13,491 nt of DNA, from the NCBI GenBank assembly GCA_937892105.1, contig CALAUZ010000042.1, forward strand, positions 1 to 13,491, read 5' to 3'. The DNA comes from an uncultured Fretibacterium sp. GTDB taxonomy: Bacteria; Synergistota; Synergistia; Synergistales; Aminobacteriaceae. Below the pieces are notes generated by a model. The model saw only the letters and a program-made list of their open reading frames with translations. It searched no databases and was not told where the DNA came from. The position numbers and the translations under genes are program-made. Below are positions 1 to 13,416 of this stretch, one piece after another (position 1 is the first letter of the stretch; each line of letters opens with the position of its first letter).

Positions 1-142
1 AGTCAAAGCCTTCGTCGTGAAGAGTGCCTGCTAGTTCAGGAGGTAAAATCGAATATAACATCGACTGAAATAAATGAAGATTCGCAGATGGTAGACGTAT
101 CGAAGATTTATCAGATGACGTTAGCAAAAACGTTATGTGCAT
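1..142 (-). CDS. cas6: Cas6-like CRISPR repeat endoribonuclease, N-terminal 47 residues only (runs off window)
   Basis: Cas6 proteins cut pre-crRNA within the repeat to give mature guides for type I and III CRISPR complexes. Reading the minus strand from an ATG at 142-140 gives 47 residues starting MHITFLLTSS and reaching SMLYSILPPELAGTLHDEGF before the window ends. The order is that of Cas6 N-termini: a first beta strand, an L-P motif near residue 17, a helix with S-M/A-I/L-Y, then P-E-L/Y-A and the LHDEG(F/Y) motif that ends the first helix-loop. The start is fixed by an AGGAGG at 149-154, six bases upstream. The catalytic residues and the C-terminal glycine-rich loop lie outside the window. 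It is divergent to the CARF-HD/RNA polymerase operon, which places that operon at a CRISPR locus. The call rests on short motifs only, so a diverged relative is possible. Confidence 0.72.
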   Translation of the reverse strand, partial: MHITFLLTSSDKSSIRLPSANLHLFQSMLYSILPPELAGTLHDEGFD

Positions 143-163
143 TGTGTTCCTCCTTTTATTTTG

Positions 164-192
164 ATAATATCATAAAATTCTATAATAATCAA
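164..192 (-). promoter_or_regulatory. Sigma70-like promoter for the Cas6-like gene
   Basis: On the minus strand TTGATT (plus-strand positions 187-192) and TATTAT (164-169) are separated by 17 bases, close to consensus. The -10 lies about 20 bp before the cas6 ribosome binding site. It runs divergently from, and only a few bases from, the promoter of the CARF-HD operon. Confidence 0.6.
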
Positions 193-199
193 AAATTAT

Positions 200-228
200 T
201 TGAGTGAATCGTCATTATATTGTACAAT
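200..228 (+). promoter_or_regulatory. Sigma70-like promoter for the CARF-HD/RNA polymerase operon
   Basis: TTGAGT at 200-205 and TACAAT at 223-228 are spaced by exactly 17 bases. Transcription would start near 235, leaving a leader of about 34 nt before the ATG at 269. The -10 is embedded in the palindrome at 217-230, so a protein bound there would block the promoter. The host housekeeping polymerase is therefore the likely first transcriber of the operon that encodes the second polymerase. Confidence 0.6.
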
Positions 229-230
229 AT
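217..230. promoter_or_regulatory. 14-bp perfect palindrome over the operon -10 element (candidate operator)
   Basis: ATATTGTACAATAT reads identically on both strands and covers the -10 hexamer of the plus-strand promoter. Position and symmetry fit a dimeric repressor site. No classical DNA-binding repressor is encoded in the operon, so the binding protein, if any, is unknown. AT-rich DNA yields short palindromes by chance, but 14 perfect bases over a -10 are worth noting. Confidence 0.4.
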
Positions 231-268
231 TTGAAATGATAAAAAATTTCACGTAGAAGGGTTTAATA

Positions 269-2338
269 ATGGGAAGACAAATTTTCATGATATGTACTTC
301 AGGTACATCAGCAGTTACAGGACTGGCAAGTGTAAAAGCTCTGCTATCTACTTCAACTGTGTCTATAACGAATCAACAAATTATAAACGCAATTCTTGAA
401 ACTCCTCCGCAAGACTCAAGAGACTATAATGAGAGAATGGCCGCTATTGAGATTATGAAAGCTCCGTCAGCAAACATTCACACGGATTTTGGAGCATCAG
501 AAAAATTCCCGAGTGCCGAACTTCAGACTATATTAAGATGGTTGAGAGAATCGCCCGATGTTGATGAATTACGAATTACTCTGCTTCCGTCTCAAGATCC
601 TAAATCAATACTCACAGCTAACGTAACCGCTGTATGTCTACAAATTTTGCAGCCACTTTTCCCCAACGTTAAATTTATCTTTAGCCGCAGCTATCCCGGA
701 ATTATTCCACTTCCGATTAAAGTAGATACTCGCCAAGAATTTTTGTCATCAGTTGCGAATTTATATCATGAACTGGATACTTTGATTGCAAATAAATCTC
801 CTGATGAAGACGTTATAATTTGTTCTACTGGAGGCTATAAAGCTGTATCTGGCTTCGCTATGGTTTACGCACAACTGCATTCACTACCTTGTCTGTATTC
901 GTTTGAGATGTCTCCTGCTGCTTATGAAGTTATGAGTATGCCTCTTGGTTATGCTTATTCAATGCTCGATGAAGAGATTAACATGTTAAAAGCCGTCTAC
1001 AGAGACACTGAGATTGATAAATCTGCTCTGCCTCAATGGGTGAAGGACTCGGAATTATTTGCTGGTACTTTTCTTAAAAGCTATGAACAGGCGCGTGAAA
1101 AGCCTTATGGTACTGGCGAAGAACTATTCAGAAGACTTCGGAAATGTCAAAACGGTAATGAATGGGCAGATTATTTGCAGGAGCTTTTAGTTAACAAGTG
1201 GTCGGAATTATGGCAGGGAGATCAGATCCCTGAAACAGTTGAGCATAGCCGCAGACATTCTAAACGCTTAATGGAGTTAGCTGCTAATTTATTCAGATGT
1301 GCCGGCGATAAAATTTCACGTATAGGCTTCACTGACAAAGACCCTAGGCCGCTAGCTTTATTGATAGCGTCGGTTTACTTGCATGATATTGGACACACTG
1401 CGCTTTCTTATCCTATAATAGTTAATGATAATGACATTGATAACGAAAACTTGTTCCCGCTTGGATTATTCCCTTCTGCTGTTCGTGAACTTCATCATTT
1501 ATTGACAGGCGAATTATTAACAGGAAATCCATCAAGATATTTTATGAGCGATAAATACTCTGATAAAGCAAAATTACTTCAAAAGTGTGTGCCGTTAATT
1601 GCAGCTCATCATAGGGGCTATACATCTTTGAAGGGAAACGCAGCAAAACTAGATGACAATGACAGAATCGCTAAAGCAGGAAATTTATTATTAGGTCGAG
1701 AAAAATTTTCTGAAACTTTAAGACCGTTAGAGGAACGAGCAAAGGTGATTGATATTCCGATGGATATATTGTTGAATGTTACGGCGTTATTACGAGTTCT
1801 TGATGGCTGTGATGTTCAGGCTGATAGGGTCATAAGCAAACACTATCTTGAATACAGAAATCAAAGAAGCAGTGATGAAGCGAGATTGATTCATGCTGAA
1901 TTATTATCTTGTATAAGGCAATTACCGCTAAATCTTCAAGAAGAAGCTAACTATTTACGCAACAACTTATCTGAAAATGAGATCAAAGACTGTTGCAAGC
2001 GAATTTATTCAAAAGTTTTTGACTCTCTCTATAATCTCAAAGAGCAATATAGAACGTGGCGCAATCTTCAAAGTGAAGCCTTGCCGGAGTTTATGGCATT
2101 GTCTTTGATTAATCGTCTTGCTTTCAAACTTGAGCAGCATATACATTTTAAGAAACATCAATGCGTGAGCTTTGTACTTCCAGTAATGGACAATAATAGA
2201 AACCTGATTAACATACAAATATTTGCAAACGATGAAAACTCTGACACAATCAACGAAATAATGAACGATATTAACAAGGAATATAATGCAGTGAAAGATA
2301 TATTAATTGATTTTCCAGCATTTGAGGCGAGGTGCTAA
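269..2338 (+). CDS. CARF-HD protein: cyclic-oligoadenylate sensor domain fused to HD phosphohydrolase
   Basis: Residues 1 to about 240 look like a CARF domain of the Csm6/Crn1/APE2256 type: an N-terminal strand ending in a Thr/Ser/Gly loop (TSGTS, residues 10-14), the STGGYK motif at 186-191 and a following Y-x-FE strand. CARF domains bind cyclic oligoadenylates made by Cas10 in type III CRISPR immunity; the Ser near residue 11 and Lys191 sit where ring nucleases such as Sso2081 have catalytic residues. Residues about 320-520 form an HD domain with H326, the H372-D373 pair in LHDIGH, H447/H448 and D512, a complete metal-ligand set. The last 170 residues are helical and unrecognised; I see no HEPN R-x4-6-H motif. 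The start is supported by AGAAGG at 255-260, eight bases upstream. The stop abuts the next ATG. The HD substrate (nucleic acid, dNTP or cyclic nucleotide) cannot be told from sequence. Confidence 0.82.
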   Translation: MGRQIFMICTSGTSAVTGLASVKALLSTSTVSITNQQIINAILETPPQDSRDYNERMAAIEIMKAPSANIHTDFGASEKFPSAELQTILRWLRESPDVDELRITLLPSQDPKSILTANVTAVCLQILQPLFPNVKFIFSRSYPGIIPLPIKVDTRQEFLSSVANLYHELDTLIANKSPDEDVIICSTGGYKAVSGFAMVYAQLHSLPCLYSFEMSPAAYEVMSMPLGYAYSMLDEEINMLKAVYRDTEIDKSALPQWVKDSELFAGTFLKSYEQAREKPYGTGEELFRRLRKCQNGNEWADYLQELLVNKWSELWQGDQIPETVEHSRRHSKRLMELAANLFRCAGDKISRIGFTDKDPRPLALLIASVYLHDIGHTALSYPIIVNDNDIDNENLFPLGLFPSAVRELHHLLTGELLTGNPSRYFMSDKYSDKAKLLQKCVPLIAAHHRGYTSLKGNAAKLDDNDRIAKAGNLLLGREKFSETLRPLEERAKVIDIPMDILLNVTALLRVLDGCDVQADRVISKHYLEYRNQRSSDEARLIHAELLSCIRQLPLNLQEEANYLRNNLSENEIKDCCKRIYSKVFDSLYNLKEQYRTWRNLQSEALPEFMALSLINRLAFKLEQHIHFKKHQCVSFVLPVMDNNRNLINIQIFANDENSDTINEIMNDINKEYNAVKDILIDFPAFEARC

Positions 2339-5300
2339 ATGACTGCGAATGATATTATTAACGATGTGCGCAAATGGCTTGAAGATACAGATATAGAAGT
2401 TAATCTAATATCGACTGCTGGAACTGAAAACGAGCTTATCAGCTTGGAATTATACGGTGCCTCTGTTAAGGAATTAGCGGAGTATTACGGGACTGATGGG
2501 CGATTGATATTAAATTGGATATTACCGAATTTCAAGGACAATGGCTGTGCTATACGAGATTTTCAGACCGGAGAAATTTATTCATCTGGTTATATTTACC
2601 GCAGACCGGAATTTGATAAGGACAAGCGCGAAAAAAATATCAAGCCGTTGAGGTTATGTCCTGATCTCGATAAAGGTGAAGTCTACCCTGCATGGTATAA
2701 CGATATTAGGCTCAAATGGAAACGTTTTGCACGCAGCATAACTAACAAGAAATGTACTCTGAATAATTTTGTGCGTCTTGAGGCTGGATTAAATGCCTTT
2801 TTCACAAGTTCTTCAGCAAGGCAGGCAGCACGTTTTACAAAAGAGAGCAGAGAAAATGAAAATCCATTATTGAGGCTGGAGAATAAACGACAAGTTCTGA
2901 TTAATTGGCCGTGTGAGACTCTAGGACGCTTGAGAATCCCTCACTCTTCACATATAAATAAATTATGTCCTTTTGAAACTCCTGAATCAAAATTGACTGG
3001 ATTGCAATTAAATTTATCTGCTGATGCTGAACCAAGTGGAGGCAAAATAATATCCGGCGATGAGTTATTGTCTATAGCTGTAGGATTAATCCCTTATCCT
3101 AATCATACTGATGGGCCTAGACTGATGATGGGCGGAAAAAATATGAAACAAGCTGAAGCTGGAATTGTTGGTGCAGAAGCTCCGATTGTACCGGGATACT
3201 ATGAAGGAATTAAATCACGCGACATAAAATCTCTGCGTCCTAACTTAAAGAAGCTGCGGTTCTTTCCTTATTTAGGGCTTAATGCTCTCACAGTCATAAT
3301 GCCTTATAATGGTTACACTTATGAAGATGGGCTTGTGATTTCTGAATCACTTGCTGAAAGACTCTGCATTAAAGAGGACATTTACAGACGGTCGAAAACT
3401 TTTGATGTAACGTTGAAGGCCTCCGAACTCGTCGCGCTTGATATAGATATTGAGTCAGGAAATGACGGCATGAGCAAAATTTTCGCGCATATAGGAGGAC
3501 GATACATATACGGAGATGAATTGTCGAGACCTAGATTAAAGTTTTACTCAATCGATAATCCAGAGCAAGAAAAATCTTGGCACGAACGCTATGAACATCA
3601 CGCGCCAGGAAACTTGACAGCAATAAGCATAAACTACATTCTCAAAAAGGAGTCTGGAAGTGTACTCAAAGGCACGAAATTTTACGAGGTAGAATTAACT
3701 ATCAAGTGGGAATTTCTCATTGAACGTCCTATGGGTTTGGGCGATAAATTGACCGGACGCAATGGCAATAAAGGTGTAGTAACCAAAATTCTTCCTGATG
3801 AAAAAATGCCGCATATTCACTTTGCTGATGAAATAAAACCAGCTGAATTAATAATTTCTCCGTGTTCGATAATTGGGCGCAAAAACCTTGGGCAAATTTG
3901 GGAAATGACTCACTCGTTATTGATAAAGAAGGGCGGCGAAAAACTCAAAGCCTTAACTGATGATAACGATATCGATATAAATAACATTCACATTGATGAA
4001 GTTCCGGAGATAAAAGACAGGTTGGGCGAATTTTTACAGGAAGCTGGCTGTAACGATTTCGGAACGTTTGAAGTAACATGTGATGGAAAAACTTTTCATG
4101 CGTTCGCAGGGTGGCAATATTTCTGCCGTCTTCATCATCACGCTTGGAAAAAATTACAGGCTCGTGGCACAAAAGCTCCTTATGATTCTGCAACTGGTCA
4201 GCCTTTACGATGTGCTGCTCTCACTGGTCAACGAATGGGCGAAATGGAAAACTGGTCATTGCTTAGTCATGGTGCTGTTGATGTATTAATGGAAATGCGA
4301 CGAACTCAGACTGGAAATTTTGCTAAAACTCGTGAATTATTCAGGAAAATTTTGCGTTCTCTAGGTATAGTCATTAGCGAAGATATTGCAGGTCTTAATA
4401 TTAACTCACGAAATCATGATGATGACATTTTAGAGAGAAAAAATTTACGTACAGCTTTAACTTCAGATAGAGAACAAACTGCTTTTTGCGGGATTATCAA
4501 CGATACAACGTGCAAAGCTGAAGCCGAAGATATCCTTTCAAGACTGAAGGACGAGAAATTAGCCAAAAAACTTGAAGAGCTTATAAAAAGTGAAATGTTC
4601 TTCAACGAGGACGGAAGCATACACATTGAGCCAGATATATTGCAATACTCAGCGGATATGTCTTATGGTATTCAGGAAACTGGAACTATCTTGTTAAATA
4701 AGCAACCGTTATTGAAAGAATTATTGCTGAAATTCTGCATAGATCGTAACGATTTTAACAGAGCTGAAGCCTTGATAGCATACAAGGACGGTTTGATTAA
4801 TCTCTTATCGCATAAAACCGGAATACCACGTTATTATTTATCAGGAAGACGTTACAATCATTCTGGACGAGCTGTTATAGTCCCTGAACCTTCATTGAGA
4901 GTTGATAATGTATATTTGCCAGCAGCTATGTTAATTGAGTTGCTTGAAGGTTACGATAAGATTTATACTAACATGCTTCCGGAAGAGCTAAAGGATTTGA
5001 GCTTGACCAGAAAAATTTTCAATGACTACTATACACATAAGGACGAGGCTAGAAAACTTGCGAGGACATTTGATGAATTTCTATTACGCGATGAAGGCGA
5101 GTTATGGTGTTTTATGATCCGTCAGCCTAGCTTGCATCGTCATAGCATTCAAGCTTTCAGGATACGTTGTTGGGAGTTTCCTGTTATCGGTCTTCCTCCG
5201 TTCGTAACTCCTGGATTCAACGCTGATTTTGATGGCGATACAATGGCTGTCTTTATTCCTGCTTATAAGCATGCAAGCAACTTGAGCAAATTCTCTATTT

Positions 5301-6568
5301 TGAATAATCCAGGCATAGTTGGAAATGGAAAAAGCGCACTTGCAGATTCACTTGATTTAGCGTTAGGATATTGGAACATGAATCACTCTAAACTCTCTGA
5401 CTATATGTGCGAGCTTCTCAAAAATACTTCTCCGGAAAAACTAGCAGATATATTACAGGACTTGCAAGGGAAAATTACGACAGCTTCATGTGGTGCAGCA
5501 ACTTTAACGCCTCTTGAGTTCAATAGGTCAATAGAATATACGAATATAGACACGTTAATCAAGTCAGGAGCAAAAGGAAGCCGTGAAGACTTCGAAAAAA
5601 TCACTGATAAAATCGGAACAATAAGCGACAAAATGAAGGACGAGGATAACTTGCTTGACTCCGAGAATATGGAAACAGTAACAATTAACGGGAATTTTTG
5701 GGACGGCCTAAATGATGAAGAGCTATTCATTTACAGTTATTCATCACGATATTCAATGGCGCAAAAGAAACTTTCTGTAGCTGAAGCCGGATATTTATCT
5801 CGTCAACTTGCCGAAAAGCTTTACGAATACACAGTTAATAGTCATGATTGCGGCTCAACTGAAGGACTTGAAATTTCATATTCTCATGAAAAAGATCGCC
5901 TCTTAATCAACGGGGAAATCTTGCCAACTCTCGGCATAAAAAAAGATATAGAGCGCATTTTATGGGGAAGAGTTATAGTAGGTCAAAATCATTGCATTAA
6001 TTCCGATGAATTGGAATATATCTTGACATCTCTAAAGGCTGGAAATAAGATTTTTGTGCGCTCTCCTCTTTGTTGTCATGAACGTGAAAATGGTCACGTA
6101 TGTGCTATGTGTTATGGCGCAGATGTTGCAACTAGGCCTTATGACAAGCCCGAACCTGTTTATGAAAATTTTGCGGCTGGATTAACTGCAGCTCAAGCTA
6201 TAGGCGAACGAGGCACTCAGCTTGCTATGAAACGCTTTCACAATGTCGGAAGTAATTCAACTAGTCCGATACAGGCTATACGAAAATTGCTTGTAAAAAG
6301 TGATAAAGCTTCAATAGCTCAAATACTCGAAGAAATTCTCACACTTGAGGCTCATACAGCTAACAAAGAGCTCCCGCAATCATTGATACATTTTGAGATC
6401 GCAGCAGCTTACAAAGATTCTGAATCGCCCAGCGAAAATTATTTATCTCAAATTGCCGGTGAAAAAATTTCACGCTTATTAATGAAGAAGCCTGATGAAG
6501 TTTTCAAATTTCACGATAGCTTAGCTACAATAAAGAGCCGTTTATTATGGGAAGGAGGAGCAAATTAA
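2339..6568 (+). CDS. Single-chain RNA polymerase: fused, reduced beta and beta-prime catalytic cores
   Basis: DNA-dependent RNA polymerase of the two-barrel type in one 1409-residue chain; E. coli beta plus beta-prime total about 2750. Beta part: the rifampicin-region equivalent at about 155-200, PFETPES at 211-217 (PIETPEG), GDKLTGRNGNKG at 468-479 with K470 and K478 matching E. coli K1065 and K1073, GQRMGEME from 630, and a beta C-terminal motif ending near 681. Beta-prime part: SGRRYNHSGR at 835-844, catalytic NADFDGD at 961-967 with three Asp, bridge helix near 1130-1160, second zinc site (C1171, C1245/1246, C1255, C1258), and trigger loop with M1297, K1298 and H1301. Missing or very short: about 350 residues of beta N-terminal lobes, the beta-prime N-terminal zinc ribbon and most of the beta-prime clamp, and most of the C-terminus after the trigger loop. 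No alpha or omega gene is present. All core residues are intact, so activity is likely; its template and promoter are unknown. Confidence 0.93.
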   Translation: MTANDIINDVRKWLEDTDIEVNLISTAGTENELISLELYGASVKELAEYYGTDGRLILNWILPNFKDNGCAIRDFQTGEIYSSGYIYRRPEFDKDKREKNIKPLRLCPDLDKGEVYPAWYNDIRLKWKRFARSITNKKCTLNNFVRLEAGLNAFFTSSSARQAARFTKESRENENPLLRLENKRQVLINWPCETLGRLRIPHSSHINKLCPFETPESKLTGLQLNLSADAEPSGGKIISGDELLSIAVGLIPYPNHTDGPRLMMGGKNMKQAEAGIVGAEAPIVPGYYEGIKSRDIKSLRPNLKKLRFFPYLGLNALTVIMPYNGYTYEDGLVISESLAERLCIKEDIYRRSKTFDVTLKASELVALDIDIESGNDGMSKIFAHIGGRYIYGDELSRPRLKFYSIDNPEQEKSWHERYEHHAPGNLTAISINYILKKESGSVLKGTKFYEVELTIKWEFLIERPMGLGDKLTGRNGNKGVVTKILPDEKMPHIHFADEIKPAELIISPCSIIGRKNLGQIWEMTHSLLIKKGGEKLKALTDDNDIDINNIHIDEVPEIKDRLGEFLQEAGCNDFGTFEVTCDGKTFHAFAGWQYFCRLHHHAWKKLQARGTKAPYDSATGQPLRCAALTGQRMGEMENWSLLSHGAVDVLMEMRRTQTGNFAKTRELFRKILRSLGIVISEDIAGLNINSRNHDDDILERKNLRTALTSDREQTAFCGIINDTTCKAEAEDILSRLKDEKLAKKLEELIKSEMFFNEDGSIHIEPDILQYSADMSYGIQETGTILLNKQPLLKELLLKFCIDRNDFNRAEALIAYKDGLINLLSHKTGIPRYYLSGRRYNHSGRAVIVPEPSLRVDNVYLPAAMLIELLEGYDKIYTNMLPEELKDLSLTRKIFNDYYTHKDEARKLARTFDEFLLRDEGELWCFMIRQPSLHRHSIQAFRIRCWEFPVIGLPPFVTPGFNADFDGDTMAVFIPAYKHASNLSKFSILNNPGIVGNGKSALADSLDLALGYWNMNHSKLSDYMCELLKNTSPEKLADILQDLQGKITTASCGAATLTPLEFNRSIEYTNIDTLIKSGAKGSREDFEKITDKIGTISDKMKDEDNLLDSENMETVTINGNFWDGLNDEELFIYSYSSRYSMAQKKLSVAEAGYLSRQLAEKLYEYTVNSHDCGSTEGLEISYSHEKDRLLINGEILPTLGIKKDIERILWGRVIVGQNHCINSDELEYILTSLKAGNKIFVRSPLCCHERENGHVCAMCYGADVATRPYDKPEPVYENFAAGLTAAQAIGERGTQLAMKRFHNVGSNSTSPIQAIRKLLVKSDKASIAQILEEILTLEAHTANKELPQSLIHFEIAAAYKDSESPSENYLSQIAGEKISRLLMKKPDEVFKFHDSLATIKSRLLWEGGAN

Positions 6569-6569
6569 C

Positions 6570-7421
6570 ATGGCACTTAGGAATCGACAACGAACCAGCA
6601 CAAAGCACTCATTACGAGAACAGATTCGCAACAGAGGGTATTCATACGTTGATAATAACACTGACATCAACGAAATCGAACTAACTCCCGAAGATTATGA
6701 TGACGCACCGTATGAAGCAGATGATCTTTCAGATTATGAAGAAGGCGAAGAACTTCAAGACGATATACATATATCGAAATGTTCAGGTATACAGCCTATA
6801 TGGTTATTATATGAAGGACAGATTTTATGGGCAACTTCAAATTTTGGTACAAGGCTTGCTGAAAGAGAATACTTAAGGAGGCGTCTTCAGTTACTGCTGA
6901 ATTTTCTTAAAGGTCAATTTCCTGATAAAAGCTATGATGTTTTGCTGTTGAGCCTTCAGGGCTTCTTTGTCCGTGATAACGATAACGATGAAGACGCAAA
7001 ATATTGGCTTGAATCGTTGAAAAACGTTGGAATTATCTACGGTGAAGGGAAGATACTTGTGCTGAAAAATTTCAGGGCATCTAAAGGTGAAAGCAAGAGC
7101 AGAGGGTTAGTAAGACTTCCTAAATACCTTGAGTATTTATGGCTGGAACGTGAACTTATGAAAACAGAAAACATTTCGGACAAGCCATTTTCATGGATAA
7201 ATTGTCAACGCTGGCTGCCTGATGGTCTAAAAAGTTTTTGCAGAGAGATCAACGAATTTTGCGCTATGCTTGATAATCAGAAACGCGACAATAACACGCA
7301 CGGACTCGGTCTAAAGCGAGTTGAATTTGGCTATATGGATTCAACGTTACAGCGTAAGAGGCTAAAAGAGTGGGCGCAATGGTGGGATAAAAAGGAGAAA
7401 GAGAATGACATACGATATTAA
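6570..7421 (+). CDS. Unrecognised 283-residue protein with acidic N-terminal segment, polymerase operon
   Basis: I do not recognise a family. Residues 1-25 are basic and polar, residues about 30-77 are very rich in Asp and Glu, and the rest (about 78-283) is a mixed helical domain containing a Leu-rich helix near 105-120, a likely helix-turn-helix-sized unit near 120-170 and a Trp/Lys-rich C-terminus. There is no signal peptide or membrane segment. AAGGAGGAG sits about 10 bases before the ATG, and the gene starts one base after the polymerase stop. Its place between the polymerase and the AAA+ gene suggests a partner of the polymerase, for example a specificity (sigma-like) or assembly subunit standing in for missing lobes; that is inference from position only. 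No sigma54 RpoN box or sigma70 region 2 motif is visible. Confidence 0.85.
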   Translation: MALRNRQRTSTKHSLREQIRNRGYSYVDNNTDINEIELTPEDYDDAPYEADDLSDYEEGEELQDDIHISKCSGIQPIWLLYEGQILWATSNFGTRLAEREYLRRRLQLLLNFLKGQFPDKSYDVLLLSLQGFFVRDNDNDEDAKYWLESLKNVGIIYGEGKILVLKNFRASKGESKSRGLVRLPKYLEYLWLERELMKTENISDKPFSWINCQRWLPDGLKSFCREINEFCAMLDNQKRDNNTHGLGLKRVEFGYMDSTLQRKRLKEWAQWWDKKEKENDIRY

Positions 7422-8805
7422 TATTTGCTTTGCTTACAAGACTAAAAACGAATCTGAGCAATTAAAGTTATGCAGAAGTTTACTTGATGATATTTTCACT
7501 AGCCTGATACAGCAAGGTAAGGCTGAATTTGATTCATTGGGTAAAATCAAAAGTTCTAACGATATTCACGATGCAGATTTCATAATCGGTAATTCATCAC
7601 ACCCTGATTTTCAAATTAATCACATAGACATGAACGAAGCAAATTTTATGCGTCCTATCCCTGCGATTATACTATTGAGTGATGATAGCTGGGATAAAAA
7701 TGTTAATGCAGTCTCTAGAAATCCAGTATATGACGTTAGAGCTATATTCAGAGCTTCAAAACTTTTTAGCGAATCCAGAGATTTGGAGGAGTTTGGGCAA
7801 TTTTCGGAAGTTATCAAGAATTTGTTGCGTGATGTATTGCGTAAACGAGGACTTAAAGAAGAAGATTTCTCAAAGCCTATAGACTGGAAAGTGAAAATAA
7901 ACAGTGATTGCGGAACTGAATTTATCAGTTTGTTCTCAACTCCTTCGATGCAGAGAATGGCTAGAAAATACAAGAACGCATTATTATCTATTGACGATCC
8001 TGTTTTGCGCAAACTTCGAGATAATGTAAGAGAATCACTTGACTTAAAGAAACGCTGTATGGAGATAAAGAACTTTTTCGGGAAAAATGCTCTTGATAAC
8101 GTTAATTCTTATCGAGTGCCTTCAGTGTTGCTTTTAGGAGAAACTGGCTGTGGAAAATCTTTATTATCAAGTATAGCTGCAAGTGTAATTATGCCAGATA
8201 AAGAATTTACCAAGATAAATATTTCGTCATATAACAAAGAGTCGATTGATCTAATGCTATTCGGAGCTGAAAAAGGCTCATACACTGATTCTGATCGAGA
8301 TAGAATGGGAGTATTAATTGGACATTGCGGTGAAGTTGTATTCCTTGATGAGATTGGGGACATGGATATAGAAACTCAGACACATTTATTAACATACATG
8401 GATAATGGCCAAGTAATGCCTCGTGGAATGGCCAGCGCAGTATGCTCGCCATGTATTTTGATAGCTGCAACGAATAAAGACGTAAATAATGATTCAACTT
8501 TCCGTAAAGACATTCTGAATCGCTTTGAACATGTTATAGAAATCCCGCCAATACGAGAGAGAAAACAAGATATGCGCCTGTTAATCAGCATACTTTTACA
8601 GAACAACAAATTGAATCCATTTATATCAGATGTTCAACGTAAAGTGCAGCGAATAAGCCTTGATGCGATAAAATATCTTGAAGACCGTGAATACTCTGGT
8701 AATTTCCGGGAATTGAAATTTCGCATAACTCAGGCAGTAAATAGCGCATTTATTGAAGGAAATTCATGTTTATGTCTTCGCCACTTTTTATTTCACGAAC
8801 AATAA
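7405..8805 (+). CDS. AAA+ ATPase of the sigma54-activator type, degenerate GAFTGA loop, no HTH
   Basis: Residues about 215-466 are a bacterial enhancer-binding-protein AAA+ module: Walker A GETGCGKS at 245-252, Walker B FLDEIGD with D315 and E316, a sensor I segment (AATNKD), an FRKDILNRF arginine-finger segment, IPPIRER and a lid ending in NFRELKFRI. The loop that normally reads GAFTGA and contacts sigma54 is here GSYTDS (291-296). The protein stops right after the lid, so the usual Fis-type DNA-binding domain is absent. Residues 1 to about 150 form an alpha/beta, Rossmann-like domain I cannot name; RtcR, a family relative, carries a CARF domain at that position, but I see no clear CARF motif. 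AAGGAG lies seven bases before the ATG, which overlaps the end of the preceding gene by 17 bases, indicating coupled translation. Likely role (inference): ATP-driven remodelling of the operon's own polymerase. Confidence 0.88.
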   Translation: MTYDINICFAYKTKNESEQLKLCRSLLDDIFTSLIQQGKAEFDSLGKIKSSNDIHDADFIIGNSSHPDFQINHIDMNEANFMRPIPAIILLSDDSWDKNVNAVSRNPVYDVRAIFRASKLFSESRDLEEFGQFSEVIKNLLRDVLRKRGLKEEDFSKPIDWKVKINSDCGTEFISLFSTPSMQRMARKYKNALLSIDDPVLRKLRDNVRESLDLKKRCMEIKNFFGKNALDNVNSYRVPSVLLLGETGCGKSLLSSIAASVIMPDKEFTKINISSYNKESIDLMLFGAEKGSYTDSDRDRMGVLIGHCGEVVFLDEIGDMDIETQTHLLTYMDNGQVMPRGMASAVCSPCILIAATNKDVNNDSTFRKDILNRFEHVIEIPPIRERKQDMRLLISILLQNNKLNPFISDVQRKVQRISLDAIKYLEDREYSGNFRELKFRITQAVNSAFIEGNSCLCLRHFLFHEQ

Positions 8806-8821
8806 CGTGAATATTTGTTTT
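8792..8821 (+). terminator. Weak intrinsic terminator at the end of the CARF-HD/polymerase operon
   Basis: TTCACG (8792-8797) can pair with CGTGAA (8806-8811) across an 8-base loop that contains the stop codon, followed by TATTTGTTTT. The stem is only six pairs and the T tract is interrupted, so termination may be partial. Confidence 0.4.
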
Positions 8822-8834
8822 ATAGTAATTTAAC

Positions 8835-8862
8835 TTGAAAAATATTTAAAATGATGTATAAT
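8835..8862 (+). promoter_or_regulatory. Near-consensus sigma70-like promoter upstream of a transposase remnant
   Basis: TTGAAA at 8835-8840 and a perfect TATAAT at 8857-8862 are 16 bases apart. The first ATG downstream (8870) begins the short IS630-like fragment and has no ribosome binding site. The promoter could be the left-over promoter of the insertion element, or could drive a short untranslated RNA toward the parA terminator side. Confidence 0.45.
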
Positions 8863-8869
8863 ACTATAT

Positions 8870-8984
8870 ATGAGTTATCCAGAAATATTTAGAAAATGCG
8901 CATTAGACTATCAGGATAAACGTATTAATTTTCGTATAACCGCAAAATAACGCCTATTATCGTACGGACAAATTCGGAAACTGA
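8870..8984 (+). pseudogene. Possible remnant of an IS630-type transposase N-terminus
   Basis: The ATG at 8870 opens a 26-codon reading frame, MSYPEIFRKCALDY followed by QDKRINF, ending in TAA at 8948. IS630-family transposases often begin MSYP/S-x-(E/D)-FRKK-(A/V)-L-x-Y before a helix-turn-helix. Reading on in the next frame from 8946 gives NNAYYRTDKFGN and a TGA at 8982, which resembles the end of the same HTH segment (YYRWxDK). Nothing of the DDE catalytic core follows. The match is from memory of the family consensus and is short. Confidence 0.35.
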
Positions 8985-8993
8985 CAATCTGTT

Positions 8994-9037
8994 TTGACGT
9001 AATTTATGATATGCTTAAGACTTGATGATTACGTCAA
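8994..9037. repeat. 10-bp perfect inverted repeat with 24-bp spacer downstream of parA
   Basis: TTGACGTAAT (8994-9003) and ATTACGTCAA (9028-9037) are exact inverted copies. A looser outer pair is also visible (CGTACGGACAAATT near 8961-8974 against AATTTGTACGT near 9035-9045). There is no T tract, so it is not a standard terminator. It could be a protein-binding site such as a partition or recombination site, or a transposon end. Confidence 0.4.
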
Positions 9038-9082
9038 TTTGTACGTTATGATCATTTATTTTGTTGAATTTATTTCATATAA

Positions 9083-9874
9083 TTACTTATAGTAAAAATT
9101 ATATAAAAAACTATATGAATATTTTGATGCGATCTCAAAGTATGCTTGGGCTACCTCTGCTTTACCCTGTGCAATAACCACAGGCAGACCTTGATATACT
9201 GCTCGAGGAGCATCCGCTGACTTCTTGATCGTTCCAAGGAATGGAATATCAAGTTCATGAAGCAACTCCCATACGTCGTACTGATCTTTGACACGCTGTT
9301 CATATATGGTTGCGATAATTCCGGCTATTCTTAAATCTGGATTCATGTCTTGGTCATTCTGTATGTTACGTATTGTGCTTAAAAGAGCCTTCATTCCTTT
9401 ATAAGCTAAGAAATCAGTTTTGCACGGAATGATTACTTCATTAGCTGCATTTATTCCGTTGAACATTAAAATTGAAAGTTGAGGAGGACAGTCAATGAAG
9501 CAGTAATCAAAATATGGAGAGAGTTTTTCGAGCGCACGCTTCAATTTCTTTTCCCGTGCAGGGAGCGTTATAAGTTTCATTTCCTGTTCAGCAAGATCAA
9601 TGTCAGAAGGAATTATGAAAAAGTTACTCATACCAAGGGCATCGATAGTATAGGCACATTCGAGTGGATCCTTGGGCGTTCGTTCAAATAATCCGCATAT
9701 ATTCAATCCCTTATAATCTCTTTCCATACCGCATGAAATTGTGAGAGAAGCCTGCGGGTCAAGGTCAACCATTAAAACTTTTTTACCTTCAAGAGCTTTC
9801 ACCGCAGCAAGATTATATGTTGTAGTTGTCTTTGCTACGCCGCCCTTTTGATTCGTTAACACAAATGTTTTCAC
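9083..9874 (-). CDS. parA: ParA/Soj-family partition ATPase (orphan, no ParB seen)
   Basis: ParA ATPases position plasmids or chromosome regions by ATP-dependent DNA binding, usually with a ParB partner. The 263-residue product (from the GTG at 9874) has the deviant Walker A KGGVAKTTT (residues 10-18), the A-prime motif VDLDPQASLT, and Walker B IDCPPQ. A GTG at 9883 in the same frame overlaps the AAGGAG (9883-9888), so it cannot be the start; the GTG at 9874 lies eight bases after that site. The last dozen residues are Tyr/Phe-rich and encoded by an AT-rich direct repeat, unlike the usual ParA end, which suggests altered C-terminal codons. No parB lies in the window. It is convergent with the polymerase operon and probably belongs to a separate plasmid-like or mobile segment. 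Confidence 0.9.
   Translation of the reverse strand: MKTFVLTNQKGGVAKTTTTYNLAAVKALEGKKVLMVDLDPQASLTISCGMERDYKGLNICGLFERTPKDPLECAYTIDALGMSNFFIIPSDIDLAEQEMKLITLPAREKKLKRALEKLSPYFDYCFIDCPPQLSILMFNGINAANEVIIPCKTDFLAYKGMKALLSTIRNIQNDQDMNPDLRIAGIIATIYEQRVKDQYDVWELLHELDIPFLGTIKKSADAPRAVYQGLPVVIAQGKAEVAQAYFEIASKYSYSFLYNFYYK
9087..9109. repeat. AT-rich direct repeat, copy at the 3' end of parA
   Basis: This 23-bp stretch matches 9911-9933 at 20 of 23 positions, with the last 15 bases (AAAATTATATAAAAA) identical. It encodes the final Tyr/Phe-rich residues of ParA. The other copy overlaps the parA promoter. Low complexity makes chance similarity possible. Confidence 0.4.
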
Positions 9875-9909
9875 AGTAGTCACTCCTTATATAAAAAATA
9901 ATTGTGTTT

Positions 9910-11124: not shown

Positions 11125-12148
11125 GTGCCAAAGAAACAATCGCTAATCGCCAACATGATTGACATAGCCGATAAGGAAGCACAATATGACAGACAGTCCA
11201 AGCGGCTTCTATCCATGACAGTAATATTAGCGTGGATACTGAAATCATGTGTTGATGAATTCAGAGATTTCAGTATCGCATACATAACAAATAACTGTTT
11301 TGTGGGCAAGCCAGAAGTCATGGTTCATGCACTTCACGCTGATCATGTCGATAGCATGGAGGAGCAGCAGACACAGAAGATAATCAGTCGGCTAAATCGC
11401 CTGCTATCAATCAGTTCGTCCAGACCATGAATTCAGAATCAAGTACGATTAAAGAGCACACTATTCATTTTGATATTCGTTTCAAGGTAAAAGTGCCAAA
11501 GAATAATGAAATCATTGAATTGATTAATTGATTATCGACATAGAAGCCCAGAAAGATACCTCTTCAATTAAACGTCTAATCCGTAGAGGAATCTATTACG
11601 TCTCAAGAATGATTTCAGAGCAGTATGGAACAGAATTCTTCAATGATGAATATGAGAAGATTAAGAAGGTAATTTCAATATGGATTTGTCCTTCAACTGC
11701 AAAATACAAGGCTAACTCGATCGTCCAGTGGCGTAGTATCACAGAACCCGTATATGGCGGATTTAAGATTGATGAAGAAGCTTCCGACTTAATGCGTGTG
11801 ATCATTGTAAATCTTGAGGATGAAAGTAAGCGTGATAAGACAGAAAATCAGATTATCCGACTTTTGAGCGTATATTTATCAGACGAAAAAACGCCGGAAG
11901 AGAAGAAAAAGATTCTGGAAAAAGAATTTGACATTGAAATGACGGAAGAAATGGAGAAGGAGGTTAGAGAAATGTATTCAATGAGTCAAGCGTTGAAGGA
12001 TAAGACTTGGCAAGAGGCCAGCATAAGATTTGCAACTAACCTGTTAAAAGATGCAAAGCCGATTTCCTATGTTGCAAAAATGACAGAACTCTCAGAAGAT
12101 GCAGTTCGTAGCACTTCGGAGGGACTTAAGAAAACGGCTAAGGATTAA
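11125..12148 (+). pseudogene. Rpn-family PD-(D/E)XK nuclease/transposase gene, broken by two frameshifts
   Basis: The family (PDDEXK_2, recombination-promoting nuclease, COG5464) encodes mobile DNA endonucleases common in gut anaerobes. The reading starts at a GTG (11125) seven bases after AAGGAGG with the hallmark (V/M)PKKQSLIANMIDIADKEA, continues in frame 1 to a TGA at 11428, resumes in a second frame through about 11427-11528 (TIKEHTIHFDIRFKVKVP, with the conserved FDIRF aspartate), then in a third frame from about 11528 to the TAA at 12148 (IDIEAQKD, containing the E-x-Q/K catalytic segment, then GIYYVSRMIS and IWICPS). The C-terminal acidic/helical part ends KTAKD. Since the three parts align in order to one ordinary-length protein of about 330 residues, two small indels are the simplest explanation, and the product is probably inactive. 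Confidence 0.8.
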
Positions 12149-12549: not shown

Positions 12550-13416
12550 TTATTCTGCCGATGATTCTGCTGAAATTGAAGGTGTCGCATCTTCTTTGTC
12601 CCTGTTTACCTTCTTATGCTTTTCCTCCCACCTAGCCTTACTGCTTGGTGTGCAGAAAGCTGTATTGCCAGCAAGATTCTTGTACAGTAGATTCCGCTCA
12701 GCTTTTCCTTCAGCTCCTTTCCAGCCTAAGCGAATCAGCCAAGTTCTGAGAGCAAATTTCTCATTCTCTGGTCGCTTAATTTTAACCTTGTGGAGATTGA
12801 CATTCTTGTCTTTTTTCTCTTCCTTCTCTTCCTTCTCATTTTTCTCATTCTTCTCTTTCATTGACTTCTCAAGGAATGAGAGAAGCATTCTGACTGCCTT
12901 CTTCATCGCAGAATCCGACAACTCATCTAAAGCTGTGATGAGTAAGGAATTATCTCTCACTTCCAATCCTTTAATCAGCTCAATCCTTTCCAATGCTTCT
13001 TCTTCTCGCAGTTCATTCGCTTCTCTGAATAAGGCAAAACCTTCTTCGAATGTGACTGCTTCTGCCAAGTCGCTTTTCACTCCTTCATCGATGAAGATGT
13101 TCATACCAGTTGCCTTGTTGAGTAGATAGCTGTGTGAGTAGATTTCGCTGATGAGGTACTTGAGGCTGTTGAGGCTGTTGAGAGTGATTGTTTGAATTGC
13201 TGTTCCTTCGATTCCAGCCTGTTCGCTTCCAGCTTCTTCATCAGTTGTTGCTTCTTCAGCTTCTGCTACATCATCAACTGGGGTAGTTGCTGTGGTTGCT
13301 GTTGATGAATCTTCTTCCGCTGTGTTATTGCTGGCAGTCTCAGATGATTCGATTGCCTCTACTGCTTCTACTGCTTCCGCAGTTGTGTTGATTGTTGTGT
13401 TAATTGCTGTTTCCAT
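12550..13416 (-). CDS. Unrecognised 288-residue low-complexity acidic/basic protein
   Basis: No family recognised. Residues 1 to about 75 are a Thr/Ala/Glu-rich low-complexity tail with EAVEAVEAIESSE repeats. Residues about 78-187 look like a folded helical domain. Residues 188-207 are a run of Lys/Glu/Asn (KEKNEKNEKEEKEEKKDK). The basic C-terminal part contains FALRTWLIRLGWKGAEGKAE then NLLYKNLAGNTAF, reminiscent of a C-terminal module seen in some plasmid-borne clostridial proteins (from memory, weak). There is no signal peptide or membrane segment. The ATG is preceded by GAAAGGA with ten bases between. A promoter and a terminator frame the gene as a single unit. An in-frame TAA ends it at 12550, yet the same frame continues for 28 codons of similar Thr/Ala/Glu-rich composition to a TAG at 12463, so the gene may carry a recent nonsense mutation or be read through. 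Confidence 0.75.
   Translation of the reverse strand: METAINTTINTTAEAVEAVEAIESSETASNNTAEEDSSTATTATTPVDDVAEAEEATTDEEAGSEQAGIEGTAIQTITLNSLNSLKYLISEIYSHSYLLNKATGMNIFIDEGVKSDLAEAVTFEEGFALFREANELREEEALERIELIKGLEVRDNSLLITALDELSDSAMKKAVRMLLSFLEKSMKEKNEKNEKEEKEEKKDKNVNLHKVKIKRPENEKFALRTWLIRLGWKGAEGKAERNLLYKNLAGNTAFCTPSSKARWEEKHKKVNRDKEDATPSISAESSAE

What the first reader, a model, noticed from the sequence alone, without database searches (positions are those of the whole stretch)
1..8821. CRISPR-linked operon pairing a CARF-HD sensor with a private RNA polymerase and an AAA+ activator
Seen: a Cas6-like N-terminus diverges from a tightly packed operon of CARF-HD, fused beta/beta-prime RNA polymerase, acidic unknown protein, and a sigma54-activator-type AAA+ ATPase. 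Known: CARF domains bind cyclic oligoadenylates in type III CRISPR signalling; enhancer-binding AAA+ proteins open polymerase complexes. Inference: a nucleotide signal raised on infection is linked to a dedicated transcription machine. It might transcribe the CRISPR array or defence genes independently of host polymerase (useful if a phage shuts it down), copy target RNA, or make toxic transcripts. I do not recognise this combination as a described system.
Basis: partly seen in the sequence, partly recalled or inferred. Interest (0 to 1): 0.96.

Follow-up and report, generated by a model that had tools for sequence, protein, structure and literature searches.

The report
CRISPR-linked private RNA polymerase operon
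Beside a CRISPR gene, this bacterial DNA carries a four-gene operon that joins a predicted infection-alarm receptor to its own stripped-down RNA polymerase, a partner protein of unknown function and a predicted ATP-driven activator ring, and it would likely let the cell switch on a reserve transcription machine when its CRISPR system detects a virus.

Summary
The operon (269-8805, +) encodes CARF-HD, a 1409-aa fused beta/beta' RNA polymerase keeping the catalytic motifs, an acid-tailed orphan (orf3) and a sigma54-activator-type AAA+ ATPase. The 47-residue frame (2-142, -) is the Cas6 N-terminus, 62-74% identical to relatives.

In Synergistota the polymerase is in at least 15 of 185 genomes. 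CARF-HD lies upstream in the 13 whose contigs reach that far; Cas10 occurs in 12, a full cmr1-6 set was read in 7. Orf3 sits beside the polymerase in all 15 (in one by position only), AAA in 14. Four genomes have CARF-HD directly before cmr1 without the other three genes, so these form an add-on module. Eight of the 15, including complete Fretibacterium fastidiosum, show no sigma54; seven of those still keep the activator.

Likely reading: an ATP-gated private transcription machine linked to type III CRISPR signalling. The signal link, promoters, targets and any defence effect are inferred. Ten literature searches listed no description; the 2020 CARF census was not held.

The parts
2..142 (-). 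5' end of cas6 (47 residues; runs off the window)
   Evidence: 62-74% identity over 47/47 residues to L002, L006, L004; L006 protein passes NCBIfam cas6
200..228 (+). promoter-like site TTGAGT-17-TACAAT in the divergent cas6/CARF-HD gap; host sigma70-type, speculative
   Evidence: 9 of 12 matches; 40 such sites in 1-9100 against 30.0 (sd 4.4) in shuffles, so weak
269..2338 (+). CARF-HD protein, 689 aa (predicted alarm-nucleotide sensor with HD hydrolase domain)
   Evidence: PDLC01933 696 bits; Cas_APE2256, HD-CE; HD residues kept in the visible part of a 16-sequence alignment
2339..6568 (+). fused beta/beta' RNA polymerase, 1409 aa
2852..4378 (+). beta-like half (residues 172-680), matches E. 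coli beta 516-1338
   Evidence: hhalign E 7.4e-44, 29% identity
4775..6244 (+). beta'-like half (residues 813-1302), matches E. coli beta' 321-937
   Evidence: hhalign E 1.1e-51, 30% identity
5219..5239 (+). catalytic NADFDGD (residues 961-967)
   Evidence: ADFDGD identical in 25 of 25 aligned family members, N in 24
6570..7421 (+). orf3, 283 aa: acidic stretch then folded core; possible initiation factor
   Evidence: family of its own; AlphaFold pLDDT 70.9; weak sigma54-like fold match
7405..8805 (+). AAA+ ATPase of the sigma54-activator kind, 466 aa, no C-terminal DNA-binding domain
8275..8292 (+). loop GSYTDS (residues 291-296) in place of GAFTGA
   Evidence: exact GAFTGA in 1 of 43 aligned relatives

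Best explanation
The four genes likely form a private transcription machine tied to type III-B CRISPR: a stripped-down RNA polymerase, an unknown partner protein that may act as its initiation factor, an ATP-driven ring predicted to open its promoters, and a CARF-HD protein predicted to sense the alarm molecule made by Cas10. Shown here: gene content and order, conservation in at least 15 of 185 Synergistota genomes, conserved active-centre motifs, absence of the usual sigma-docking regions, an intact Cas10 cyclase motif in relatives, and purifying selection. Inferred: Cmr finds phage RNA, Cas10 makes cyclic oligoadenylate, CARF-HD responds, and polymerase plus orf3, held inactive at dedicated promoters, is opened by the AAA+ ring using ATP. 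The most likely output is transcription of the CRISPR array, cmr and other defence genes by a polymerase that phage inhibitors of the host enzyme would not recognise.
For: Co-occurrence: CARF-HD upstream of the polymerase in 13 of 15 carriers, the other two contigs ending inside it; 13 of 14 against 11 of 171 non-carriers, Fisher p 1.1e-12 (G026 counted as non-carrier). Cas10 (PF22335) in 12 of 15 carriers; 11 of 14 against 40 of 171, p 5.3e-5. Full cas10-cmr1-3-4-5-6 set read in 7 carriers. Cas10 GGDD in 10 of 10 carrier proteins read, so the cyclase is probably active. Orf3 profile hits exactly the 14 carriers and nothing else in 185 genomes. AAA follows the polymerase module, not CARF-HD: beside orf3 in 14 of 15 carriers and not in the four loci where CARF-HD directly precedes cmr1. 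Eight of 15 carriers show no sigma54 with either of two models; in seven of the eight the operon AAA is the only strong activator-type hit (89-127 bits, next 41 or less). Active-centre motifs kept in 24-25 of 25 relatives at the aspartates, beta lysines and trigger-loop histidine. dN/dS 0.045-0.104 to the closest relatives.
Against: Nothing ties the alarm signal to the polymerase except gene order. One carrier, G001, has orf3 followed by a diaminopimelate-epimerase gene and no AAA in its draft genome. G024 has a truncated AAA without polymerase. Seven carriers do have sigma54, so the AAA might serve it there. Orf3 has no sequence support as an initiation factor. Classical sigma54 promoters are not enriched near the loci (2 against 5.3 expected). 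CARF-HD works without the polymerase in other genomes. Carriers with nearly identical genes give dN/dS 0.20-0.36, from few changes. Only one phylum was searched.
Confidence: 0.5

Rival explanations
1. Target amplifier: the polymerase transcribes invading DNA (or copies invader RNA) to give the Cmr complex more RNA to recognise, boosting Cas10 signalling rather than switching on new genes.
For: Type III systems see only transcribed targets (passages of PMC9704534); the linked loci are type III-B; sigma-docking parts are missing, which would fit promoter-independent use.
Against: A dedicated activator ring is more natural for defined promoters (inference); the core is closest to DNA-dependent bacterial enzymes. 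Template use was not tested.
Confidence: 0.2
2. Constitutive CRISPR polymerase: it transcribes the array or cmr genes at all times and is not controlled by CARF-HD, which is a separate effector sharing the operon.
For: CARF-HD stands alone before cmr1 in four genomes, so it has a job without the polymerase; arrays lie near the loci in 7 carriers.
Against: The polymerase lies directly behind CARF-HD in the carriers whose contigs show it, with one small gene between in two; an ATP-driven activator points to control (inference).
Confidence: 0.14
3. Suicide output: once signalled, the ungated polymerase makes useless transcripts, drains nucleotides or blocks replication, stopping the infected cell.
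For: Many CARF effectors act by dormancy or death (abstracts and passages of PMC12409355, PMC9704534); a CARF-RelE gene is found beside most loci read.
Against: A 4.2-kb enzyme plus two further genes is an expensive toxin; CARF-HD and CARF-RelE could already do this (inference).
Confidence: 0.08
4. Decoy: the module soaks up phage inhibitors aimed at RNA polymerase and its own activity is secondary.
For: Phages often attack host RNA polymerase (general knowledge, recalled).
Against: Catalytic motifs are kept, genes are under purifying selection, and the surfaces that many inhibitors use, the sigma-docking parts (recalled), are missing.
Confidence: 0.04

Closest known systems
CalpL/CalpT/CalpS (type III CRISPR, Sulfurihydrogenibium)
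   Same: Type III signal leads to a transcription response (passages of PMC11417357 read).
   Different: CalpS is an ECF sigma factor for the host polymerase, freed by a protease; here the locus encodes a polymerase and an AAA+ ring, with no protease or ECF sigma factor among the four genes.
Csa3 (CARF-HTH regulator)
   Same: CARF-controlled transcription linked to CRISPR (passages of PMC9704534).
   Different: A DNA-binding regulator of the host enzyme, not a polymerase.
RtcR and other sigma54 activators (NtrC, PspF)
   Same: Same AAA+ kind.
   Different: No C-terminal HTH, altered GAFTGA loop, N-terminal domain not matched by the CARF-AAA-HTH models, and 8 of 15 host genomes without detected sigma54.
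YonO (SP-beta prophage single-chain RNA polymerase)
   Same: One-chain enzyme with the two-barrel catalytic aspartates (passages of PMC5467207).
   Different: No detectable sequence relation; the paper reports no detectable trigger-loop homology in YonO, whereas here the trigger-loop motif is kept.
CARF-HD (PADLOC CARF7--CARF_HD)
   Same: Full-length match, 696 bits.
   Different: Known as a lone model; here it heads an operon with a polymerase.

Membership tests
Type III-B CRISPR-Cas locus | Cas10/Cmr2, Cmr1, Cmr4, Cmr6 and Cas6 over curated cut-offs in the linked locus | tested here: met
   Relatives only: L006 Cmr2 189, Cmr1 60, Cmr4 219, Cas6 123 bits, L004 Cmr6 107 bits, all over cut-off; Cmr3 and Cmr5 by Pfam
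Type III-B CRISPR-Cas locus | cmr genes in the window's own genome | not testable with these tools
   Window ends inside cas6; no genome held
CARF7--CARF_HD (PADLOC) | Full-length profile match | tested here: met
   696 bits, profile 2-657 of 670
CARF7--CARF_HD (PADLOC) | Binding of cyclic oligoadenylate | not tested
   Needs biochemistry
Multi-subunit-class RNA polymerase | Catalytic aspartates, beta lysines, trigger loop | tested here: met
Multi-subunit-class RNA polymerase | Complete bacterial beta/beta' including sigma-docking regions | tested here: not met
   No counterpart of E. coli beta 1-515 and beta' 1-320; beta 835-1056 only with long gaps; the positions of the docking sites are recalled
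YonO-type single-chain polymerase | Sequence relation to YonO | tested here: not met
   BLASTP best E 2.8; profile comparison probability 0.1
Bacterial enhancer-binding protein (sigma54 activator) | Sigma54-activator AAA+ domain | tested here: met
Bacterial enhancer-binding protein (sigma54 activator) | GAFTGA loop | tested here: not met
   GSYTDS in the window; exact GAFTGA in 1 of 43
Bacterial enhancer-binding protein (sigma54 activator) | Sigma54 in the host | tested here: inconclusive
   Window host unknown; absent in 8 of 15 carriers, present in 7; 7 of the 8 are draft genomes
RpoN/sigma54 (for orf3) | Sequence models or relation to RpoN | tested here: not met
   No sigma54 model among Pfam hits of 35 members at E up to 10; no PDB sequence hit; hhalign probability 0.2
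RpoN/sigma54 (for orf3) | Sigma54 fold | tested here: inconclusive

The most novel reading that the evidence does not exclude
A CRISPR system that owns a complete, self-contained transcription machine: a minimal fused RNA polymerase, a highly diverged sigma54-like factor (orf3) and its own AAA+ activator, silent until the type III alarm signal arrives and independent of host sigma factors, so that defence genes go on being transcribed when a phage disables the host polymerase. It would be an ATP-gated, sigma54-style transcription system built for immunity.
Probability: 0.25. Interest if true: 0.97.

Novelty: categorically new. Interest (0 to 1): 0.91.

Why it matters
To my knowledge (recalled) no bacterial immune system is known to carry its own multi-subunit-class RNA polymerase. 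If it works as inferred, type III CRISPR does not only cut or poison but runs a separate transcription programme, possibly one that survives phage shut-off of the host enzyme. The polymerase is of interest by itself: an enzyme with a full set of active-centre motifs but without the sigma-docking parts would show how little is needed for regulated promoter opening, and an activator kept in hosts without detected sigma54 makes the question of its partner directly testable.

Tried and rejected
Viral, phage or plasmid origin: a viral-contig scan with six exact peptide patterns found no relative (limited sensitivity). In the plasmid and phage collections no record had a place covering 80% of the query (65 and 43 records with weaker matches); the listed rows (20 of each) look like ordinary RpoB/RpoC or a Rhizobium-phage beta'. 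Host duplication: one branch with support 100 separates the fused family from host RpoB/RpoC and from other fused enzymes (42 sequences, 462 columns; supports inside the family go down to 58). YonO relation: rejected. Orf3 as sigma54 by sequence: no support. Viral structure library for orf3: no match with E below 0.001. Classical -24/-12 promoters: 2 hits against 5.3 in shuffles over 9,957 intergenic bases. AAA N-terminal domain: only whole-protein matches with receiver-type activators at rmsd 17 to 24, so its fold relation stays open. Polymerase folding was not tried (1409 residues; the two fold jobs went to orf3 and AAA).

Rows dropped or added before counts: one search lists 15 genomes; I dropped G045, whose only match is to beta' residues 1070-1308 in a 1668-aa frame, ordinary RpoC by my reading, and added G026, found through AAA. 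The polymerase search scored only 3 candidates per genome, so 15 of 185 is a lower bound. The Fisher tests used 14 carriers. Of the 11 CARF-HD-model genomes without polymerase five carry a full-length protein (G038, G112, G114, G116, G117); four of these lie directly before cmr1, G112 does not; the other six are partial, weak or broken matches. Exceptions: G001 lacks the AAA; G024 has a truncated AAA alone. I had first put G001's missing AAA down to a cut contig; one search showed that the contig runs on.

Literature: the 2020 CARF census (recalled) was not held, so I cannot say whether it mentions the polymerase. Ten searches listed no paper whose title or abstract start describes it; only 20 of 34 and 15 of 459 papers were listed. 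Term look-up in main texts: PMC12669027 and PMC12409355 have 0 occurrences of 'RNA polymerase' and 'CARF-HD', PMC11229360 0 of 'RNA polymerase', PMC9704534 one, in a figure legend about transcription of invader DNA. No whole paper and no supplement was read.
Full report
What is in the window. Four genes run on the plus strand with junctions of 0, +1 and -17 bases: CARF-HD (269-2338), a fused RNA polymerase (2339-6568), orf3 (6570-7421) and an AAA+ ATPase (7405-8805). On the minus strand the window begins inside a gene whose 47 visible residues match, over their whole length and at 62-74% identity, the start of proteins in three related genomes; one of these passes the NCBIfam Cas6 cut-off. The closest genome found is a red-deer Synergistales assembly: polymerase residues 1-695 are 92% identical. 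dN/dS against that genome is 0.045-0.104 in the seven gene pieces compared; more distant pairs give 0.11-0.20 (one saturated), and nearly identical pairs, with few changes, 0.20-0.36.

Genome context. The window's own genome is not held. Among 185 Synergistota genomes the polymerase search gave 14 carriers (after dropping G045), and a fifteenth, G026, appeared through its AAA gene. CARF-HD lies upstream of the polymerase in 13 of the 15; in G001 and G026 the contig ends inside the polymerase gene. The orf3 profile hit the same 14 genomes and no others; G026 has a similarly built protein in that place which the profile did not detect. AAA lies beside orf3 in 14 of 15; in G001 orf3 is followed by a diaminopimelate-epimerase gene and no AAA was found. 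G107 and G110 carry one extra small gene between CARF-HD and the polymerase. Cas10 (PF22335) occurs in 12 of 15, a full cas10-cmr1-3-4-5-6 set was read in 7, and arrays were seen near the locus in 7. A CARF-RelE gene, identified as such in L005 and L006, has homologues in most of the loci read. Of five genomes with full-length CARF-HD and no polymerase, four have it directly before cmr1, without orf3 or AAA. So CARF-HD belongs to the type III-B system, and polymerase-orf3-AAA behaves as a unit that is added or lost.

The polymerase. It aligns with E. coli beta 516-1338 (residues 172-680, E 7.4e-44) and beta' 321-937 (residues 813-1302, E 1.1e-51). ADFDGD is identical in 25 of 25 family members; the two beta lysines and the trigger-loop histidine are kept in 24, 25 and 25. 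Without counterpart are beta 1-515 and beta' 1-320, and beta 835-1056 aligns only with long gaps. From recall, the beta' coiled coil and the beta flap tip, the main docking sites of sigma factors, lie there. In a tree of 42 sequences one branch with support 100 separates this family (6 members with the operon seen and 14 database relatives) from the hosts' own RpoB/RpoC and from another set of fused enzymes. No phage or plasmid record covered 80% of the query.

The signal. Cas10 was read in 10 of the 12 carriers that have it, and all 10 keep GGDD. Nine have no HD dipeptide in the first 150 residues, G064 has one, so the output probably depends mostly on cyclic oligoadenylates. CARF-HD keeps its HD residues in the visible part of an alignment of 16 (output partly cut). 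That CARF-HD senses this signal follows from the CARF family and was not tested.

Mechanism and likelihood. I put 0.5 on a private, ATP-gated transcription machine linked to the type III signal, with defence genes as targets. Polymerase activity is implied by the motifs; the AAA-polymerase link rests on co-occurrence; the role of orf3, the promoters, the control by CARF-HD and the targets are inference. Rivals are amplification of target RNA (0.2), constitutive array transcription (0.14), a suicide output (0.08) and a decoy (0.04).

Known or new. The single parts are known kinds: CARF-HD (PADLOC model), type III-B, the activator family, the bacterial polymerase core. The nearest system is CalpL/T/S, which frees a sigma factor for the host enzyme (passages of PMC11417357). 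Ten literature searches listed no paper on this combination, and the 2025 classification (PMC12669027) has no occurrence of 'RNA polymerase' in its main text. The 2020 CARF census was not held, so novelty is stated with that gap. Of the 62 closest database polymerases, 16 have the same longest-contig length as an AAA relative (from the listings), which suggests that the pairing holds in metagenomes too.

Noticed in passing
window 9083-9883 (-): ParA-family ATPase (AAA_31 162 bits; below the NCBIfam cut-offs), which may hint at a mobile or plasmid-derived stretch beside the operon.
   Followed up: no
window 11125-12148 (+): Rpn/PDDEXK-type transposase-like ORF (11528-12148, starts at profile position 66-68) preceded by a shorter open frame (11125-11430); looks like a truncated or broken copy.
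   Followed up: partly
window 12550-13416 (-): Low-complexity E/K/T-rich ORF, 288 aa, with no family over cut-off.
   Followed up: no
L048:12957-13415 (-) and L047:13935-14432 (-): Small extra gene (152 and 165 aa) between CARF-HD and polymerase in G107 and G110, without Pfam or PADLOC match.
   Followed up: partly
L047 (G110): This polymerase locus lies beside cas1, a reverse-transcriptase gene and a divergent Cas10.
   Followed up: partly
L107:15300-16247 (-): G024 has a 315-aa AAA of the operon kind without polymerase in the 20 kb read, near a Csm1-type Cas10.
   Followed up: partly
P0063-P0079: Other fused beta/beta' proteins of 1600-2400 aa, one from a Verrucomicrobia assembly, fall outside the CRISPR-linked family; their gene neighbourhoods could not be reached.
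   Followed up: partly
P0251: A Thermotoga protein named a sigma54 regulator is 34% identical to the operon AAA over 71% of it, although no Thermotoga name appears among the listed polymerase hits.
   Followed up: no
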